IMG/VR virus record: IMGVR_UViG_3300044841_000053
Location: 1-24,629 of that record
Reading direction: 5' to 3' (one strand)
Source: a virus
Length of the DNA stretch: 24,629 nt
Notes under the pieces: generated by a model
Told to the model about the DNA's origin: nothing
The model's database searches: none
Seen by the model: only the letters and a program-made list of their open reading frames with translations
Position numbers and translations under genes: made by a program
In this document: one piece after another, positions 11,845 through 22,848 of the stretch
Numbering within the stretch: position 1 is the stretch's first letter
Layout of the letters: each line of letters starts with the position of its first letter

Positions 11845-11901
11845 TCAGATCTTCCCCGCCTTTAGCGCGTCTCTGAGGGGTTGGATTGAGTTGGGTGTCA
11901 T
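11845..11901 (-). CDS. Micro-ORF bridging base-modification and replication genes
   Basis: This has 18 codons (MTPNSIQPLRDALKAGKI). Its ATG overlaps the upstream stop (ATGA), and its TGA ends four bases before the replication-protein ATG. It carries that gene's ribosome-binding site. It could be a translated coupling leader rather than a functional peptide. Three other gaps in the operon have the same arrangement. Confidence 0.4.
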   Translation of the reverse strand: MTPNSIQPLRDALKAGKI

Positions 11902-12812
11902 GAGCCCCGCCCCGGAACGTAGAGCGCGCGTGGCTTGCCCTCACCGAGTTTGACGCGCAGATATTTGTCGGTCTCACAAAGGATGTTTGGTACGTCGCTG
12001 AAGTCCATCAAGACGTTGGTCTCTTGCTGGACGACCTTGTAGATTGCGCGCATTTCTACGAGTGCCTGGGCTTGCGAGAGAGGCGCATCGACAGCGCGAC
12101 CATGAATGCGATTGAGTCCGCGCAACGTACCCGGCCCAGCAGCGGCCCATTCATAGGTATCGAGCGCGTGTCTCAGTAATTCCGTGAAACGCATATCCAC
12201 GACGGCCTGATAGGCCATGAACTGGCCCCACCCGTTTGATCTCGTGATGAGCTCGTGCGTGCGCTGGAGTGTCGCGTTAGCGCCGAAGTGTCGCGCGAAG
12301 ATATCGCGGCGCCCCCAAAGCGCACCGATGACCGTTTCAGCAATATACGACTGCTTGTCCGCACCTTTGGTCGACGGCGCCGATATCATGTAAGCGCCAG
12401 TGTAGACCTTGTCGCCACGCGCCTTGCGGCGGTTCAACACCATTGTCATTTCGCTTGGCTTGAAACTGTCGTTAACCGGCCACGCGCCGTTGAAAACTAG
12501 GTCATCCAAGGTATCCGGCCAATTGATTTGACGGCAGATGCACAACATCAGCCACAACAACGGATGATCGACATAGCGTTCGCGGATGTGTTCCCGAATC
12601 CAGACTGTGCCGCGGTCATCCTCGCGCCGTACGCAACAGAACCGGAAGCCCGGTTCATACTCACCATCGACTATGCGACCCGCAAATATCCAGTCGTCGG
12701 ACCATGGCATCGGCTTCCCCGGTTCGGCTGGGACACGTTCGATTTCCTTACGGACGCGGATTTGCTCGCGCTCGCGCACCCAATAGAACAGCGGTTCGTA
12801 ATTCGGGGTCAT
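11898..12812 (-). CDS. Predicted DNA base hypermodification protein (aGPT-Pplase2 / HMUDK-helical type)
   Basis: The protein has 304 residues and resembles the all-helical family described in phage thymine-hypermodification systems as alpha-glutamyl/putrescinyl thymine pyrophosphorylase, related to the helical domain of 5-hmdU DNA kinase. The signature is YEPLFYWVREREQIRVRKE at the N-terminus, PWSDDWIFAG (36-45), FRFCCVRREDDRGTVWI (57-72), LLWLMLCICRQINWPDTLDD (85-104), and KARGDKVYTGAYMISAPSTK (130-149) followed by QSYIAETVIGALWGRRD. No P-loop is present, so it is not itself a kinase. The family acts on 5-hydroxymethyluracil-derived bases in DNA. No dUMP hydroxymethylase or hmU kinase appears in this window, so the substrate here is open. 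It overlaps the AP2-HNH gene upstream by four bases. Confidence 0.75.
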   Translation of the reverse strand: MTPNYEPLFYWVREREQIRVRKEIERVPAEPGKPMPWSDDWIFAGRIVDGEYEPGFRFCCVRREDDRGTVWIREHIRERYVDHPLLWLMLCICRQINWPDTLDDLVFNGAWPVNDSFKPSEMTMVLNRRKARGDKVYTGAYMISAPSTKGADKQSYIAETVIGALWGRRDIFARHFGANATLQRTHELITRSNGWGQFMAYQAVVDMRFTELLRHALDTYEWAAAGPGTLRGLNRIHGRAVDAPLSQAQALVEMRAIYKVVQQETNVLMDFSDVPNILCETDKYLRVKLGEGKPRALYVPGRGS

Positions 12813-13291
12813 GCAACCTCCCGCAACTCTGGAAAATTGAGGACGGCAAACTCTCCGAAAACTTTCAGAACATAGATGTCGCGCTCACGCGCGGCTAGCA
12901 ACGCATCGGTAAATCGCCCGATGGTAATCGTTTTGCTGTCAACTGTGGTCTGGGCCACGAACGTCTTGCGCTTGGGCTCCCAATATACACCCCGATATCC
13001 TGATGCTGGCGTGGGGTGGATGACGTTGGCCCGATTCAGGCTACCCGTGCAGAGCCGAAGATTTCCCCGAGTGTTGTTGAGGCCGTTATGATCTTTGTGA
13101 TCGACCTCGCAGCCAGGAGGGGCGGCAAGGATTTCGCGGTGCATGTAGACGCCTTGACTGTTGCGAGCGTACCAATTGGGCTCAGATGGATGATTTGTAA
13201 CGGCGTGCCATACACCAACCGAGAGGCGTTCAAAATCCTCATCGTCCACAATCACAACCTTTCCGCGCGATATTTTAATTTCTCTCAGCAC
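12809..13291 (-). CDS. HNH endonuclease with AP2-type DNA-binding domain (copy 1)
   Basis: The protein has 160 residues. The GTG at 13291 has GGGGA six bases upstream. The N-terminal strand region (KISRGKVVIVDDEDFERLS) is typical of this family. The HNH core is MHREILAAPPGCEVDHKDHN, then GLNNTRGNLRLCTGSLNRAN. It is followed by an AP2-like GYRGVYWEPKRKTFVAQ with TITIGRFTDALLAARERD. It ends in the usual GEFAVLNFPE. These are mobile homing-type nucleases. It is overlapped (ATGA) with the base-modification gene and so is embedded in the operon without an intron. Confidence 0.92.
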   Translation of the reverse strand: MLREIKISRGKVVIVDDEDFERLSVGVWHAVTNHPSEPNWYARNSQGVYMHREILAAPPGCEVDHKDHNGLNNTRGNLRLCTGSLNRANVIHPTPASGYRGVYWEPKRKTFVAQTTVDSKTITIGRFTDALLAARERDIYVLKVFGEFAVLNFPELREVA

Positions 13292-13292
13292 T

Positions 13293-13340
13293 CTAATTCC
13301 CCACCCTCTCAGTCTCTATGGCTTGGGTTGCTGCGGTCAT
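13293..13340 (-). CDS. Micro-ORF bridging cytosine-MTase-like and HNH genes
   Basis: This has 15 codons (MTAATQAIETERVGN). Its ATG overlaps the upstream gene's stop (ATGA) and its TAG ends one base before the HNH GTG start. The GGGGA ribosome-binding site of the HNH gene lies within it. It is likely a coupling leader; the peptide itself need not be functional. Confidence 0.4.
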   Translation of the reverse strand: MTAATQAIETERVGN

Positions 13341-14056
13341 TCTGCGGGCTCAGTAACTTTGGCTACCCACGTCATAAACGGCATCGCTAATTCCAGCGCC
13401 GTTGGTGGCGCTGGTTTCGCAAACAACGGTCCCCATTGCCGGGCAACAGCGTGGGCAATTCCGGGCTCAGTCTCGCTGCGCTTCTGTTCGCGATCCTCGC
13501 TCGGCGCCATTTTCCAGCACTTCGGCTCAATCTTCGCGTAGTCGGATTTCTTGAACTCACGTTTCAGCTTTGGCAGGCCGTACAGCCACCAACCGGCGGC
13601 CTTAGTGAAAGGATCGCCGAACCACCACGGCTGCGTGTATTGATCCGCGGTGCGTCCGATCAGCTTGACGGCGTGACCGTGCGGAATCGAGTTCTCGACC
13701 GCACGTCGCGGAATGTGGGTCGCGTCCCGGAACAGGTTAAAGAACCGGGCACCTTCCTCCATCTTCGCCCAACGATCGGGGTCGCGGCCATGCTCCTTGG
13801 CCCAAACGCCGTTGATGCGCCTGTAAAGGTGCTTCGCTCCGGAGTTCGCTAGGAACTTGCAGACAGGGTGGGCAATGAGGCCGCGCCAGTGACGAGCGCC
13901 CAGGATATCCCGCACGTCGCCATGGTAGTGAGGCCCCGGCCTGCGTGTTGGCTTCAGGTCGCAGGAAATTGCGCGGAGGCCTGCGGCAATCAGCGCGTCG
14001 CGCATAACCCCGCTTTCCTCGCAAGCAACTAAAATGTCAAAGTCCTCAATCCTCAA
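13337..14056 (-). CDS. Cytosine-C5-methyltransferase-like protein (phage short form)
   Basis: The protein has 239 residues. The TTG start at 14056 overlaps the previous stop (TTGA), with GGAGG five bases upstream. Motif I is FDILVACEESGVMRDALIAA, ending GLRAISCDL. The motif IV position reads AHPVCKFLANSG (Cys66) where relatives have HPPCT. Motif VI is RAVENSIPHG (Glu121) where relatives have VENPxPHG. Then follow QPWWFGDPFTKAAGWWLYGL and a C-terminal AHAVARQWG. It belongs to a short family usually annotated as DNA cytosine methyltransferase, lacking a separate target-recognition domain. The catalytic Cys and Glu are present, but the Pro before Cys is lost. Activity is uncertain. Confidence 0.8.
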   Translation of the reverse strand: MRIEDFDILVACEESGVMRDALIAAGLRAISCDLKPTRRPGPHYHGDVRDILGARHWRGLIAHPVCKFLANSGAKHLYRRINGVWAKEHGRDPDRWAKMEEGARFFNLFRDATHIPRRAVENSIPHGHAVKLIGRTADQYTQPWWFGDPFTKAAGWWLYGLPKLKREFKKSDYAKIEPKCWKMAPSEDREQKRSETEPGIAHAVARQWGPLFAKPAPPTALELAMPFMTWVAKVTEPAE

Positions 14057-15340: not shown

Positions 15341-15573
15341 GCCTTTACCTCGCGACCTTGCCACCTAAGCGAGGCGTCAATCTCCAGCGATACTCCGGCG
15401 CTCGCTTCAACTAGTGCCGCTCTGAGGGCGTCCGCAGCCCTGGAATCGTCCACACCGAAGCCGCCAACTTCCAATCGGAAATAACCGCCAGCGCCGTACC
15501 AGCGCCGCTCAATGATGGCCTCAACAACGTCGCCAGCAGGTGTTTTGCATTTGCGGAAGGTGATCCCGGTCAT
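15337..15573 (-). CDS. Small beta-rich hypothetical protein
   Basis: The protein has 78 residues (MTGITFRKCKTPAGDVVEAI, then RRWYGAGGYFRLEVGGFGVD, then a helix DALRAALVEASAG and a final strand VSLEIDASLRWQGREV). The pattern suggests a small two-layer alpha/beta domain. Four-base overlaps at both ends support the coordinates. No family is recognised. Confidence 0.78.
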   Translation of the reverse strand: MTGITFRKCKTPAGDVVEAIIERRWYGAGGYFRLEVGGFGVDDSRAADALRAALVEASAGVSLEIDASLRWQGREVKA

Positions 15574-15974
15574 GGCGCCACCGCATCAGGCAGGACGCGA
15601 TATTCGATGACCTTGCCGTGAAAGGTGGCCAGTTTGATCCCAACCTGCATCCCATTCGATATTCCGCGGTCGGTATACACAACCACCGCGTCCGCCCGAT
15701 GCATCCAGGCGTGCCCCGCATTGATGCCGTGAGCACGTTCTGCGGGGTGGCTATCGTCTAGAACTCCGTCTTGGGTGTATAGGAGGTGCGACGCGATCGG
15801 GCTTTCACCTCGAAGCAGACAATCCCTGACACAGGCGCGCGCATAGGCGATGTTTGCCGGGATGTCGCCAGCGAATGGCGACTCCAGCAACACGCAACGC
15901 ATATCCTTCGTGTGCGATCCGAACCGCGCAGGGTTCGAGAACGGCGAAAGATCGAGATTTTCGGTTCCGCCCAT
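15570..15974 (-). CDS. DUF7768 / nucleoside 2-deoxyribosyltransferase-like protein
   Basis: The protein has 134 residues. Residues 25-130 follow the phage DUF7768 pattern: MRCVLLESPFAGDIPANIAY, SPIASHLLYTQ (59-69), RAHGINAGHAWMHRADAVVV (80-99), YTDRGISNGMQVGI. This group belongs to the nucleoside 2-deoxyribosyltransferase/DUF4406-like fold, which handles nucleosides or nucleotides. The exact reaction is unknown for the phage members. The ATG at 15974 abuts the ParB stop (TAGATG) and follows GGCGG at five bases. Placement between ParB/methyltransferase and other modification-type genes makes a nucleotide or base role attractive. Confidence 0.8.
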   Translation of the reverse strand: MGGTENLDLSPFSNPARFGSHTKDMRCVLLESPFAGDIPANIAYARACVRDCLLRGESPIASHLLYTQDGVLDDSHPAERAHGINAGHAWMHRADAVVVYTDRGISNGMQVGIKLATFHGKVIEYRVLPDAVAP

Positions 15975-16787: not shown

Positions 16788-16824
16788 TATCGACTCCCAT
16801 GAAATTTGATTTTGTATTTGTCAT
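16774..16824 (-). CDS. Micro-ORF bridging methyltransferase and parB
   Basis: This has 16 codons (MTNTKSNFMGVDNAAS). Its ATG overlaps the methyltransferase stop (ATGA), and it ends 14 bases inside the ParB gene, spanning the GGGAG site of parB. It is probably a reinitiation bridge. Evidence is limited to position. Confidence 0.35.
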   Translation of the reverse strand: MTNTKSNFMGVDNAAS

Positions 16825-18374
16825 TCTGCTGCGGCCTCTAGTCCTGCGAAGAGCGAGTCCGCGCCGAACGGGGCCTTGTCTTTGCCGAGTTGCTTGACCA
16901 TGTGACGCGAGCCCTCTTCCTTGCCCATGAAGGCTGCTTCGATACGAGCGCGAGCGAGAGTGGCGTATTCGGGATTGAGTTCGATCAGTGTTGTCGTGCG
17001 GCCGAGCTGCGCAGCTACAAGCGCGGTCGTGCCCGCGCCACCGAATATGTCGAGTATGCGAGACGGTATCGGCGACGCGTCCGGACAATCACACGTTGGA
17101 GCGAAGCCAAGAGTCTTGACATTTTTTTCCAGTCGCACCGCGAACCCTGCCGTCTGCGCGCGATTGTCAGTGCTGCGCGGACCGTTCGTTGTTCGGTTGC
17201 CGGGGTTGTCGTAAGTTGTTTCGGTTTGGCGCCGCCACGGCGCTCCGCAGCACACACAAGCGCCAGCCTCACTAGATCCCGCTTTGATGCAGCGCTCCGC
17301 CAAAGCCGGTGGGAAAGTCGCGAAGTGTGCGTCCGAGAATGAAGCGGTCGGAATAGTCCAGACATTCCGCAGATTGCGTCCTGCCTCACGCGGCGCGAAG
17401 CCCGCACCCGACGTGCCTTCAGCGGATAGATCGGAGTCGCCGTCGATTATCTTTCGTCCATATTCTTTACTATGCGGCTTCTGCCCTCCAACAGCCTTCA
17501 TGTTACCGTTGGTTTTCTGGCCGCCGTTCGCGCGCGTCGATCCAGTTTGCGATTCTAAATCTTGCGCGAGTCGCCAAACAGACGATTGAGCAAGGGGCTC
17601 CGCTACCGCGTCCGCATCATAGAAATATCGATCCTGCTTTGAGAGTAGCCACACCTTTTCATGTGACGTGCCCGGCCGATCTTTGATGCTCTCCGGCATC
17701 GGATTTGGTTTATGCCAGACGATCTCGCTGCGCACGTACCAACCCGCTTCCTGGAGCGCTATAGCGAGACGATTTGGGATCATGCAAAGGTCTTTGGGCT
17801 TAAGGTAGCCACCGCCACGCCAGCGGATTGAATCGTCACTCTTGCCCCATCCGCCGACGTCGACGTCCTCACGTTCCTCACCAGCCGTTATTCGCTTGCC
17901 GCCTATCGCAACAATTCTGCCGGGGTGGTTTGAGCCTTCATTTCGTTGCTGCTTGCAGTCGCCACCACGCCGATCGCCGCTCTCATGGTTCGGAGAGTAG
18001 ATCTCACCTACGGTAGAGAACGGCTTATCCCGGAACGTCCGATCATCGTTGCCTGCGGCCTTAGTGTCCGCCGCGCTGCGCCCGTTCGGCGATGTCGCGT
18101 AGCAATCCCCATAATTCAACCAGAGCGTTGCGCTCGGCTTCATTACCCGGCGCACCTCATTGAACACGTCGACCATCACGGCCAGGTGCTCGCCTAGCGT
18201 CGGCTCCAGCCCGATCTGCCCCTCGACATCGTAGTCCCTTAAACCCCAGTAGGGCGGAGAGGTCACCACGCAATCAAAATGATCGTCTGGCAACGTCCTG
18301 AGCATTGCTCGCACGTCGCCGAGAAGCATCGTAACGCGACCATCAAGAAACGTGGTTTGGAAGTCAGCGCTCAC
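16821..18374 (-). CDS. Site-specific DNA methyltransferase, beta class (N4-C or N6-A)
   Basis: The protein has 517 residues. The GTG start follows GGGAGG at six bases. Motif IV TSPPYWGLRDY (38-48) comes first, and the AdoMet-binding motif I DIFGGAGTTALVAAQ (442-456) comes last with IELNPEY, the order of beta-class enzymes. The SPPY form is commoner in N4-cytosine enzymes, but N6-adenine cannot be excluded. The middle (110-430) includes the likely target-recognition region, with PNRLAIALQEAGWYVRSEIV, then WHKPNPMPES, and a CVCCGAPW...CDC cysteine cluster. No restriction endonuclease is visible, so protection or regulation is more likely than a restriction system. Confidence 0.93.
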   Translation of the reverse strand: MSADFQTTFLDGRVTMLLGDVRAMLRTLPDDHFDCVVTSPPYWGLRDYDVEGQIGLEPTLGEHLAVMVDVFNEVRRVMKPSATLWLNYGDCYATSPNGRSAADTKAAGNDDRTFRDKPFSTVGEIYSPNHESGDRRGGDCKQQRNEGSNHPGRIVAIGGKRITAGEEREDVDVGGWGKSDDSIRWRGGGYLKPKDLCMIPNRLAIALQEAGWYVRSEIVWHKPNPMPESIKDRPGTSHEKVWLLSKQDRYFYDADAVAEPLAQSSVWRLAQDLESQTGSTRANGGQKTNGNMKAVGGQKPHSKEYGRKIIDGDSDLSAEGTSGAGFAPREAGRNLRNVWTIPTASFSDAHFATFPPALAERCIKAGSSEAGACVCCGAPWRRQTETTYDNPGNRTTNGPRSTDNRAQTAGFAVRLEKNVKTLGFAPTCDCPDASPIPSRILDIFGGAGTTALVAAQLGRTTTLIELNPEYATLARARIEAAFMGKEEGSRHMVKQLGKDKAPFGADSLFAGLEAAAE

Positions 18375-22018: not shown

Positions 22019-22276
22019 CTAGACCACCACCATCCCGACCACACGAGCGCGTGCCCAGCGCGGGTCGCTATGGTCAACCCTCTTTGCAATGCTTCCCCCG
22101 CCCCTATGTTTTCGTCGGGGAGCGAGGCCGAGCGAGCCCGCGTGGCTCATGGCGTAGTTCGGCGACACGCCGTATTCGCGCGCGAGTTCAGCAGAAGGTG
22201 CGAGGCCGAGATGCAGGTAAACCTGCAATAATTGATGTTGCTGCGCCGCTGTGATTTTCTGGCGGGGGATTTTCAT
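22019..22276 (-). CDS. Small helix-turn-helix protein
   Basis: The protein has 85 residues. MKIPRQKITAAQQHQLLQVY, then LHLGLAPSAELAREYGVSPN and YAMSHAGSLGLAPRR, forms a probable HTH at residues 12-52. A basic Gly/Arg-rich tail follows. The ATG overlaps the GcrA-like gene's stop (ATGA). It is likely DNA-binding, from the HTH pattern; no specific target can be inferred. It may regulate early genes. Confidence 0.75.
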   Translation of the reverse strand: MKIPRQKITAAQQHQLLQVYLHLGLAPSAELAREYGVSPNYAMSHAGSLGLAPRRKHRGGGSIAKRVDHSDPRWARARVVGMVVV

Positions 22277-22848
22277 GCAGCCTCCTCATCCCCAGCGACC
22301 GCCAACGAAAGTACGTTTGGCAACAGGGCGCGGTGAATGATTGCGGTCGCGTCTGGCCGCTCGCGACCTCGCATCGCTCCCGCTGGAGTGTGACAGAGTT
22401 CGTGATGCAGATCGCAGTACGGCCCGCCCAACGTTGCGTGACCGCAGTACGCATAAGGCGGGATGTCCCCATATGGATAATGACAAACGCCGTCCCGAAG
22501 TTCGTCAATCGAGATACTCAGCGGCTCTACGGCGGCACACCGGAGCGCGATCGGTTCCGACTCGACGCTCTCGATGATGCGGTGACGATTGCTGTTGCCG
22601 TTCGCCTGGATAATGCGGACGCGGGGCTTGCGTTTCCGCATCCGCTCCGGATTGGGCATGGTCGGTTTTCTGTCGTGGTTGTTGAGACCCATTCTTCCGG
22701 CGCGTCCGATCACTGCGTTTCTGGAATATCGAGTTCCAAATCTTGCGTTCAGCTCGTCGCGAACCCTCGAAAACGACAACTTTCCAGCCGCCAGATATTC
22801 GCGAAGGGCGTTTGAATGGTCGTCATGCCAAACGGTTGCAAAGCCCAT
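22273..22848 (-). CDS. GcrA-family cell-cycle regulator homologue
   Basis: The protein has 191 residues. GcrA proteins of alphaproteobacteria bind RNA polymerase sigma70 and activate promoters with N6-methylated GANTC sites. The N-terminal HTH is visible (VWHDDHSNALREYLAAGKLS, ...YSRNAVIGRAGRMGLN, residues 6-56), matching the family's RNAVIGKxxRLGL motif. The C-terminal domain is also present: GVCHYPYGDIPPYAYCGH then GGPYCDLHHELCH (120-153), like the C-x-WP-GDP...FCG...PYCxxH of GcrA. The linker is basic. AGGG lies upstream of the ATG. A phage copy could redirect host transcription or read methylation of phage DNA. Confidence 0.85.
   Translation of the reverse strand: MGFATVWHDDHSNALREYLAAGKLSFSRVRDELNARFGTRYSRNAVIGRAGRMGLNNHDRKPTMPNPERMRKRKPRVRIIQANGNSNRHRIIESVESEPIALRCAAVEPLSISIDELRDGVCHYPYGDIPPYAYCGHATLGGPYCDLHHELCHTPAGAMRGRERPDATAIIHRALLPNVLSLAVAGDEEAA

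What the first reader, a model, noticed from the sequence alone, without database searches (positions are those of the whole stretch)
11898..12812. Base-hypermodification enzyme without its usual partners
The 304-residue protein has the all-helical aGPT-Pplase2/HMUDK-helical signature (PWSDDWIF, CVRREDDRGTVWI, CRQINWPDTLDD, KARGDKVYTGAYM). In characterised phages these enzymes act after a dUMP hydroxymethylase and a 5-hmU DNA kinase. Neither is present in this 24.6 kb window. Either the partners lie outside, or this phage uses a different substrate base.
Basis: partly seen in the sequence, partly recalled or inferred. Interest (0 to 1): 0.72.

Follow-up and report, generated by a model that had tools for sequence, protein, structure and literature searches.

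The report
Orphan phage DNA-base enzyme, partners lost
A phage gene from a family known for helping phages disguise their DNA turns out to belong to a widespread branch that lives alone, without any of the other enzymes that route needs and with part of its likely working pocket rebuilt, so it probably does a different and still unknown job on DNA bases.

Summary
The record ends with the window, so the rest of this phage cannot be read. The question can be answered through relatives.

Tree: the protein falls in a clade of about 30 (SH-aLRT 97-99%). None of the 26 related virus records (up to 225 kb) or the window encodes a thymidylate-synthase-like dUMP hydroxymethylase, 5-hmU DNA kinase or ADDT transferase. 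Sister-clade records do (12/12, 6/6, 6/6). The gene is the only one these otherwise unrelated phages share. It is under purifying selection, and all 27 aligned members have lost one conserved loop (RAES....WY.W.K) while keeping the core residues. So 'partners lie outside' is unlikely and 'different role' is favoured.

The AlphaFold model (pLDDT 93) resembles HhH DNA glycosylases. One clade member has a hydroxymethylase alone beside it. Distant bacterial members sit in TIR/Nmad2/TS operons like reported anti-phage systems. Best reading: a stand-alone base-flipping enzyme repurposed from thymidine hypermodification, perhaps acting on foreign hmU-type DNA. The substrate is unproven. New variant of a known kind.

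The parts
11898..12812 (-). Orphan HMUDK_hel (aGPT-Pplase clade 1) gene, 304 aa, ATG start overlapping the stop of the upstream HNH gene (ATGA)
   Evidence: ORF list; PF18723 E=1.3e-35; phrog_2396 E=3.8e-53; AF2 model pLDDT 93.4; ATGA junction with GGGAGG upstream
12600..12644 (-). Residues 57-71, RFCCVRREDDRGTVW: N-terminal signature; F58, R63, E64, D66, T69 kept in all 62 aligned homologues
12354..12386 (-). Residues 143-153, ISAPSTKGADK: remodelled loop. Cassette members have R-A-E-S-xxxx-W-Y-x-W-x-K here; lost in all 27 orphan-clade members
12195..12233 (-). Residues 194-206, GWGQFMAYQAVVD: hairpin resembling the helix-hairpin-helix GxGxxxA of DNA glycosylases; Phe198 stands where EndoIII has its lyase lysine (inferred)
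   Evidence: weak profile alignment; Foldseek to MjOgg
12159..12161 (-). Asp218, invariant in all 62 homologues; about 20 residues after the hairpin, where HhH-GPD glycosylases carry the catalytic Asp (18 in Nth/MutY); inferred active-site residue
11955..11996 (-). Residues 273-286, DVPNILCETDKYLR: C-terminal signature (D273, C279, E280, K283 invariant)
12809..13291 (-). Upstream, translationally coupled HNH endonuclease gene with AP2 domain (homing-type); context, not a shared partner
   Evidence: HNH_3 E=1.7e-6, AP2 E=3.2e-4; no counterpart in the eight related records compared

Best explanation
The gene is a stand-alone member of a partner-free clade of the HMUDK_hel / aGPT-Pplase1 family. 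Shown by computation: family membership, loss of the hydroxymethylase-kinase-ADDT pathway from the clade's genomes, spread as a single gene among unrelated phages, integrated elements and chromosomes (the named bacterial carriers are alphaproteobacterial), purifying selection, retained core residues, and loss of one clade-diagnostic loop next to the TGAYMI motif. Inferred from the model: a helix-hairpin-helix DNA-glycosylase-like fold that would bind duplex DNA, flip a base into a pocket holding invariant Asp218, and act on it without a phosphorylated or pyrophosphorylated hmU intermediate, because no kinase is available to make one. Most likely target (inferred, about 0.35): a 5-hydroxymethyluracil-type base that the carrier does not make itself, that is DNA of competing hmU/hypermodified phages or oxidised thymine, so that the protein works as exclusion or repair rather than as self-disguise.
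For: PF18723 match, no ADDT match. Tree: one clade, 83/97 support with long branches, SH-aLRT 98.9 without; 29 of its 30 rows have no hydroxymethylase or kinase within 10 kb, while 58 of 60 rows outside it have at least one. Whole records: PF00303 in 0/26 orphan virus records against 12/12 sister records (Fisher 3.7e-10, though the rows share ancestry); kinase PF18748 0/27 with the window against 6/6; ADDT PF18724 0/27 against 6/6. G002, which shares capsid, protease and portal genes with the window, is 61.6 kb with head, tail-type, lysis-type and integrase genes and has none of the three. No other gene shared by more than 5 of 29 loci, apart from ORFs antisense to or overlapping the target. 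dN/dS about 0.16. Loop lost 27/27. Model pLDDT 93.4, pTM 0.91; top PDB match MjOgg glycosylase, probability 1.00; viral matches are HMUDK_hel and, weaker, ADDT proteins. Link to hmU: clade member L107 has a phage-type hydroxymethylase (47% identical to M6 TS) 17 bp downstream, with a dCTP-deaminase-like gene near. Cargo/immune setting: integrase beside homologues in L108 and L133 and in 6/24 orphan against 0/15 sister virus records; bacterial homologues in TIR-Nmad2-TS-TylF operons or next to a CBASS-type phospholipase; a TS and a '5-hydroxymethyluracil kinase' domain validated in anti-phage systems (PMC13092281).
Against: No biochemical data for any clade member were found, and the role of HMUDK_hel is not settled even in M6. 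The structural match to glycosylases is by fold only (E=0.01, TM 0.38-0.50, no Pfam HhH-GPD match), and ADDT transferases share it, so the fold does not distinguish excision from transfer. Orphan genes often lie in early regions among DNA methyltransferases, which would also suit self-modification. The immune-like operons belong to bacterial homologues of low identity (21-26%), not to this clade. All virus records are possibly incomplete (no end repeats).
Confidence: 0.5

Rival explanations
1. Self-modification with unknown or host-supplied partners: the enzyme adds a group to a base in the phage's own DNA, using a handle made by an unrecognised enzyme (for example a non-TS hydroxymethylase, or a methyltransferase-made handle) instead of hmU.
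For: Window carries two DNA methyltransferase-type genes close by (phrog_757 at 13337-14056; N6_N4 at 16821-18374); L004 has C5 and D12 methyltransferases upstream, L041 an MT-A70 enzyme; C5 methylase PF00145 in 7/24 orphan against 0/15 sister virus records; G002 has Nmad5, a gene of the M6 cassette. Retained core residues.
Against: No partner family is shared across the clade; methyltransferases are common in temperate phages; no TET/JBP match, although that search had no positive control.
Confidence: 0.25
2. The canonical partners exist but lie elsewhere: outside this fragment, in the host chromosome, or supplied by a co-resident phage, and the enzyme does ordinary thymidine hypermodification.
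For: The window is a 24.6 kb fragment. One clade member, L107, has a hydroxymethylase next door.
Against: 0/26 related virus records, up to 225 kb, have hydroxymethylase, kinase or ADDT; in cassette phages these genes are within a few kb. No kinase or ADDT in the four bacterial genomes that carry clade members. Loop lost in the whole clade.
Confidence: 0.1
3. A DNA-binding protein without base chemistry: a former base-flipping domain kept as a modified-base reader, transcription factor or host-takeover factor.
For: In SP10 the domain belongs to a larger protein named as a kinase, so it could originally serve recognition; the window phage also carries a GcrA-like regulator.
Against: Putative catalytic residues (R63, E64, D66, D218, R235, D273, E280, K283) are invariant through the clade and beyond, which recognition alone does not predict.
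Confidence: 0.15

Closest known systems
HMUDK_hel / aGPT-Pplase clade 1 of cassette phages (Pseudomonas M6 gp55, Pam3 Pam3_50, Rhizobium RHph_TM26 EVB34_007)
   Same: Same Pfam family over the full length (M6 gp55 tested); 40-46% identical to the window protein; same core residues
   Different: Those sit in a cassette with dUMP hydroxymethylase, P-loop 5-hmU DNA kinase and ADDT-type genes and carry the RAES..WY.W.K loop; the orphan clade has neither
ADDT (PF18724, aGPT-Pplase2; structure 8z2n, glycinyltransferase of a Pseudomonas phage)
   Different: No sequence-profile match; ADDT uses phosphorylated hmU made by a kinase, which is absent here
HhH-GPD DNA glycosylases (MjOgg 3fhf/3knt)
   Same: Best structural match in the PDB; hairpin and following Asp in similar places
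   Different: No profile match; lyase lysine replaced by Phe198; substrate unknown
Bacterial HMUDK_hel operons: ThsB_TIR + Nmad2 + TS + TylF + HMUDK_hel, and DCD + HMUDK_hel + ACPS; DefensePredictor TS / 5-hmdU-kinase-domain defence systems (PMC13092281)
   Same: Same Pfam domain without the P-loop 5-hmU kinase in the stretch; mobile, immune-like setting
   Different: Only 21-26% identical, longer (330-400 aa), multi-gene with effectors; the phage clade is a single gene. That DefensePredictor's '5hmdUk' is PF18723 was not checked

Membership tests
HMUDK_hel / aGPT-Pplase clade 1 (PF18723) | Full-length profile match above the curated cut-off | tested here: met
   123.6 bits vs 25; residues 5-291 on profile 4-278 of 281
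HMUDK_hel / aGPT-Pplase clade 1 (PF18723) | Conserved core residues of the family | tested here: met
   20 invariant columns in 62 homologues, all kept in the window protein
HMUDK_hel / aGPT-Pplase clade 1 (PF18723) | RAES....WY.W.K loop after TGAYMI, seen in cassette members | tested here: not met
   absent in all 27 orphan-clade members, second W in 100% of 32 cassette members; the distant bacterial members also lack it, so it marks cassette members rather than the Pfam family
ADDT / aGPT-Pplase clade 2 (PF18724) | Profile match | tested here: not met
   no ADDT hit at E up to 0.5; M6 gp51 hits ADDT at 1.4e-46
M6-type thymidine hypermodification pathway | dUMP hydroxymethylase (TS-like) | tested here: not met
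   absent from the window and from 26/26 related virus records
M6-type thymidine hypermodification pathway | 5-hmU DNA kinase (PF18748) | tested here: not met
   0/27 including the window, 6/6 sister records
M6-type thymidine hypermodification pathway | Amino acid:DNA transferase ADDT | tested here: not met
   0/27 including the window, 6/6 sister records
M6-type thymidine hypermodification pathway | Modified thymidine in virion DNA | not testable with these tools
   needs LC-MS of a carrier phage
HhH-GPD DNA glycosylase | HhH-GPD profile match | tested here: not met
   none in Pfam scan; hhalign to Nth/MutY/AlkA under 1% probability
HhH-GPD DNA glycosylase | Fold with hairpin and catalytic Asp | tested here: inconclusive
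   MjOgg best PDB match, probability 1.00, E=0.01, TM 0.38/0.50; Asp218 placed by motif spacing only
Known anti-phage defence system | Match to a catalogued defence protein | tested here: not met
   no PADLOC-DB match at E up to 1

The most novel reading that the evidence does not exclude
A single-gene, phage-borne immunity or exclusion factor made from a DNA-disguise enzyme: the orphan protein recognises hydroxymethyluracil-derived bases in the DNA of competing phages and excises or attacks them, turning the rivals' protection into a target.
Probability: 0.22. Interest if true: 0.82.

Novelty: new variant of a known kind. Interest (0 to 1): 0.52.

Why it matters
HMUDK_hel proteins are usually read as a sign that a phage hypermodifies its thymidines. 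This clade shows that inference fails for a whole branch: the gene alone, with its loop rebuilt, is not evidence of thymidine hypermodification. The sharp contrast (no partners and no loop against partners and loop) also gives a natural comparison for finding out what the domain does, which is open even in M6, and links phage DNA modification to TIR/TS operons of bacterial immunity.

Tried and rejected
(1) Clade 2/ADDT label: rejected, no profile match. (2) Chance or spurious ORF: rejected. (3) Missing partners as an artefact of a short fragment: tested in whole relatives and disfavoured. (4) A hidden shared partner next to the orphan genes: all-against-all comparison of 29 loci found none in more than 5, apart from ORFs antisense to or overlapping the target. 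(5) TET/JBP dioxygenase as another hmU source: no match, but no positive control, so inconclusive. (6) Single-protein kinase search with RHph_TM26: no hit and no control; replaced by the Pfam profile. (7) Solved-structure search by sequence: nothing useful. (8) First AlphaFold model with 8 sequences was poor (pLDDT 71); the 62-sequence model replaced it. (9) Sequence-profile homology to HhH glycosylases: under 1% probability, only the hairpin lines up. (10) A three-residue alignment was a mistyped request and carries nothing. (11) Key papers (Lee 2018 PNAS, Lee 2022 NAR gkab781, Wen 2024 NAR) could not be read: the latter two were looked up and are not held, the first was not looked up. Statements on their content rest on citing papers or my own knowledge, and I could not check whether they mention partner-free members.

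Full report
What is there. The finding gives no strand. The ORF at 11898-12812 is on the minus strand, 304 codons, intact (the plus strand has four stops). Its ATG overlaps the stop of the upstream HNH gene (ATGA) and has GGGAGG a few bases upstream. It matches Pfam HMUDK_hel (PF18723) end to end at E=1.3e-35 and PHROG 2396 at 3.8e-53. No ADDT match appears. Scanning Pseudomonas phage M6 as a yardstick separates the families: gp54 is the P-loop 5-hmdU kinase (PF18748), gp55 is HMUDK_hel, gp51 is ADDT, the amino acid:DNA transferase. The window protein is therefore the M6 gp55 type (aGPT-Pplase clade 1).

The window is a whole IMG/VR record of 24,629 bases, so nothing more of this phage can be read. 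It encodes a capsid protein cut by the end and a protease-type protein (both judged from sequence and order), portal, terminase, a DnaT-like replication protein, ParB, a polymerase sliding clamp, two DNA methyltransferase-type proteins, DUF7768 and GcrA. No dUMP hydroxymethylase, kinase or ADDT is in it, and no window ORF of 100 aa or more has a Walker A motif.

Relatives. The closest cultured phages are 46% identical or less, and the ones looked at (RHph_TM26, Pam3, M6) carry a thymidylate synthase (the hydroxymethylase) and a P-loop kinase beside the gene. Closer relatives, 54-71%, are all uncultured virus contigs or bacterial genomes. I took 87 loci plus M6, Pam3 and RHph_TM26, searched each with reference hydroxymethylases, kinases and other M6-cassette proteins, and built a tree. 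The window protein lies in a 30-row clade (83/97). Of these, 29 have neither gene within 10 kb (or within the contig, where shorter) and one (L107) has a hydroxymethylase but no kinase. Of the 60 rows outside, 58 have one or both; the two exceptions are distant bacterial proteins. Without the three long branches the orphan set is one side of a single branch, SH-aLRT 98.9.

Whole records. The flank search could miss distant genes, so whole records were searched with curated profiles. PF00303: 0 of 26 orphan-clade virus records, 12 of 12 sister records. Kinase PF18748: 0 of 27 including the window, 6 of 6. ADDT PF18724: 0 of 27, 6 of 6. A few orphan records carry identical copies of the protein, so independent records number about 23. 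Eleven are longer than 39 kb, one 225 kb. The best stand-in for the missing part of this phage is G002 (61.6 kb), which shares capsid, protease, portal, clamp and ParB homologues with the window as well as the orphan gene. Its called genes cover head, tail-type, lysis-type and integrase functions (tail and lysis genes judged from sequence and order only). It has none of the three partners, though it has Nmad5, another M6-cassette gene. None of these records has end repeats, so completeness is not proven.

One mobile gene. In an all-against-all comparison of the neighbourhoods, the orphan gene (with ORFs antisense to or overlapping it) is the only thing common to all 29 loci; the next families reach 5. 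In Bradyrhizobium sp. LHD-71 it lies between chromosomal metabolic genes with no phage gene in sight. In L108 an integrase follows, and a 39%-identical homologue in another genome (L133) directly follows an integrase. Tyrosine integrases occur in 6 of 24 orphan and 0 of 15 sister virus records. dN/dS is about 0.16, with synonymous sites near saturation, so the gene is kept by selection.

What changed. Comparing 27 orphan with 32 cassette sequences, the core is the same (R63, E64, D66, T69, R94, N97, D218, G226-P-G, R235, D273, C279, E280, K283), but one loop after TGAYMI differs. Cassette: R-A-E-S-xxxx-W-Y-x-W-x-K, with small departures in a few rows. Orphan: S-A-P-xx-K-G-A-D-K-Q, five residues shorter, tryptophans absent in all 27. 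L107, which has a hydroxymethylase, has the short loop too; the sister group with full partners has the long one. More distant bacterial members also lack the tryptophans. Reading: the loop belongs to work with the kinase or its phosphorylated product. That is inference.

Structure. With 62 sequences AlphaFold2 gives pLDDT 93.4 and pTM 0.91. Among viral models the best matches are HMUDK_hel proteins of RSL1 (TM 0.83), phiW-14 and the 637-aa SP10 '5-hmdU DNA kinase', with ADDT weaker. In the PDB the best is the HhH 8-oxoguanine glycosylase MjOgg (probability 1.00, E=0.01, TM 0.38-0.50). GWGQFMAYQ lines up with the glycosylase hairpin, Phe198 at the lyase lysine and Asp218 near the catalytic Asp (weak; spacing 20 against 18, read by eye). 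A DNA-binding, base-flipping enzyme is the natural inference; excision is not shown.

Function. Amino-acid or polyamine transfer to hmU needs a phosphorylated leaving group (established for M6/ViI-type pathways; own knowledge), so without a kinase this enzyme cannot do that reaction as known. Two leads point to hmU all the same: the hydroxymethylase beside L107, and the recurrence of TS with HMUDK_hel but no kinase in bacterial operons with ThsB_TIR, Nmad2 and a TylF-type methyltransferase. Another bacterial homologue lies next to a CBASS-type phospholipase in Gloeothece. A 2026 screen validated a thymidylate synthase and a '5-hydroxymethyluracil kinase' domain in anti-phage systems and predicted an aGPT-Pplase domain as defensive (PMC13092281). 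A carrier without its own hmU could meet hmU in foreign phage DNA or in oxidised thymine. I therefore put first an enzyme acting on hmU-type bases the carrier did not make (about 0.35 for that step), then self-modification with unknown partners. PMC9599517 notes that in M6-like phages TS always occurs with aG/PT-PPlase1. The orphan clade is the converse case, which I did not find described in the literature held here.

Verdict. Observation confirmed, family label corrected, 'partners outside' disfavoured, role open. New variant of a known kind.

Noticed in passing
L134:4801-9782, L135:4633-9613, L137:8680-12331; Sinorhizobium chiapasense plasmid L141:310-8110: Bacterial operon ThsB_TIR + Nmad2 + thymidylate synthase + TylF-type methyltransferase + HMUDK_hel (the L137 copy was read for the last three genes only; domains were scanned in L134), without the hmU kinase; looks like a multi-gene immune system and resembles TS/5hmdU-kinase-domain systems in PMC13092281.
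   Followed up: partly
L136:8241-10893, L138:9065-12325, L107:12826-13620: dCTP deaminase-like (DCD) genes close to HMUDK_hel in three genomes; in L136 with a 4'-phosphopantetheinyl transferase (ACPS), in L138 an ACPS-like ORF by sequence only. Function of the set unknown.
   Followed up: partly
L142:114-2175 (Gloeothece plasmid pP742404): HMUDK_hel gene overlapping a CBASS cGAMP-activated phospholipase gene, with TIR genes nearby.
   Followed up: no
L034:5917-9213; compare L004:6543-9302 and L009:5051-8941: Very large protein just upstream of the orphan gene, combining a PAPS-reductase domain and a D12 adenine methyltransferase (L034); the L004 protein has the D12 domain only, the L009 one was not scanned.
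   Followed up: no
window 22273-22848 (-): GcrA cell-cycle regulator homologue (PF07750, E=2.4e-19) in the phage; the N6/N4 methyltransferase at 16821-18374 has only a weak CcrM-like match, far under its cut-off.
   Followed up: no
window 15570-15974 (-): DUF7768 / nucleoside 2-deoxyribosyltransferase-like gene; a DUF7768 gene also lies upstream of the orphan gene in L043, and a 63%-identical copy is in G003.
   Followed up: no
L037:5580-6701, L044:10807-11796, L105:8477-9460: DUF5131 proteins (cysteine pattern like radical SAM) within a few genes of the orphan gene in three loci.
   Followed up: no
L106:9968-10855 (Bradyrhizobium sp. LHD-71): Orphan gene in a bacterial chromosome between TctC/GntR-type genes, no phage genes nearby; the one named, non-MAG carrier found.
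   Followed up: partly
window residues 46-55 of the target (12648-12677, -): Window protein alone has an insertion of about 10 residues before RFCCVRRED, absent from the seven relatives in alignment A1.
   Followed up: no
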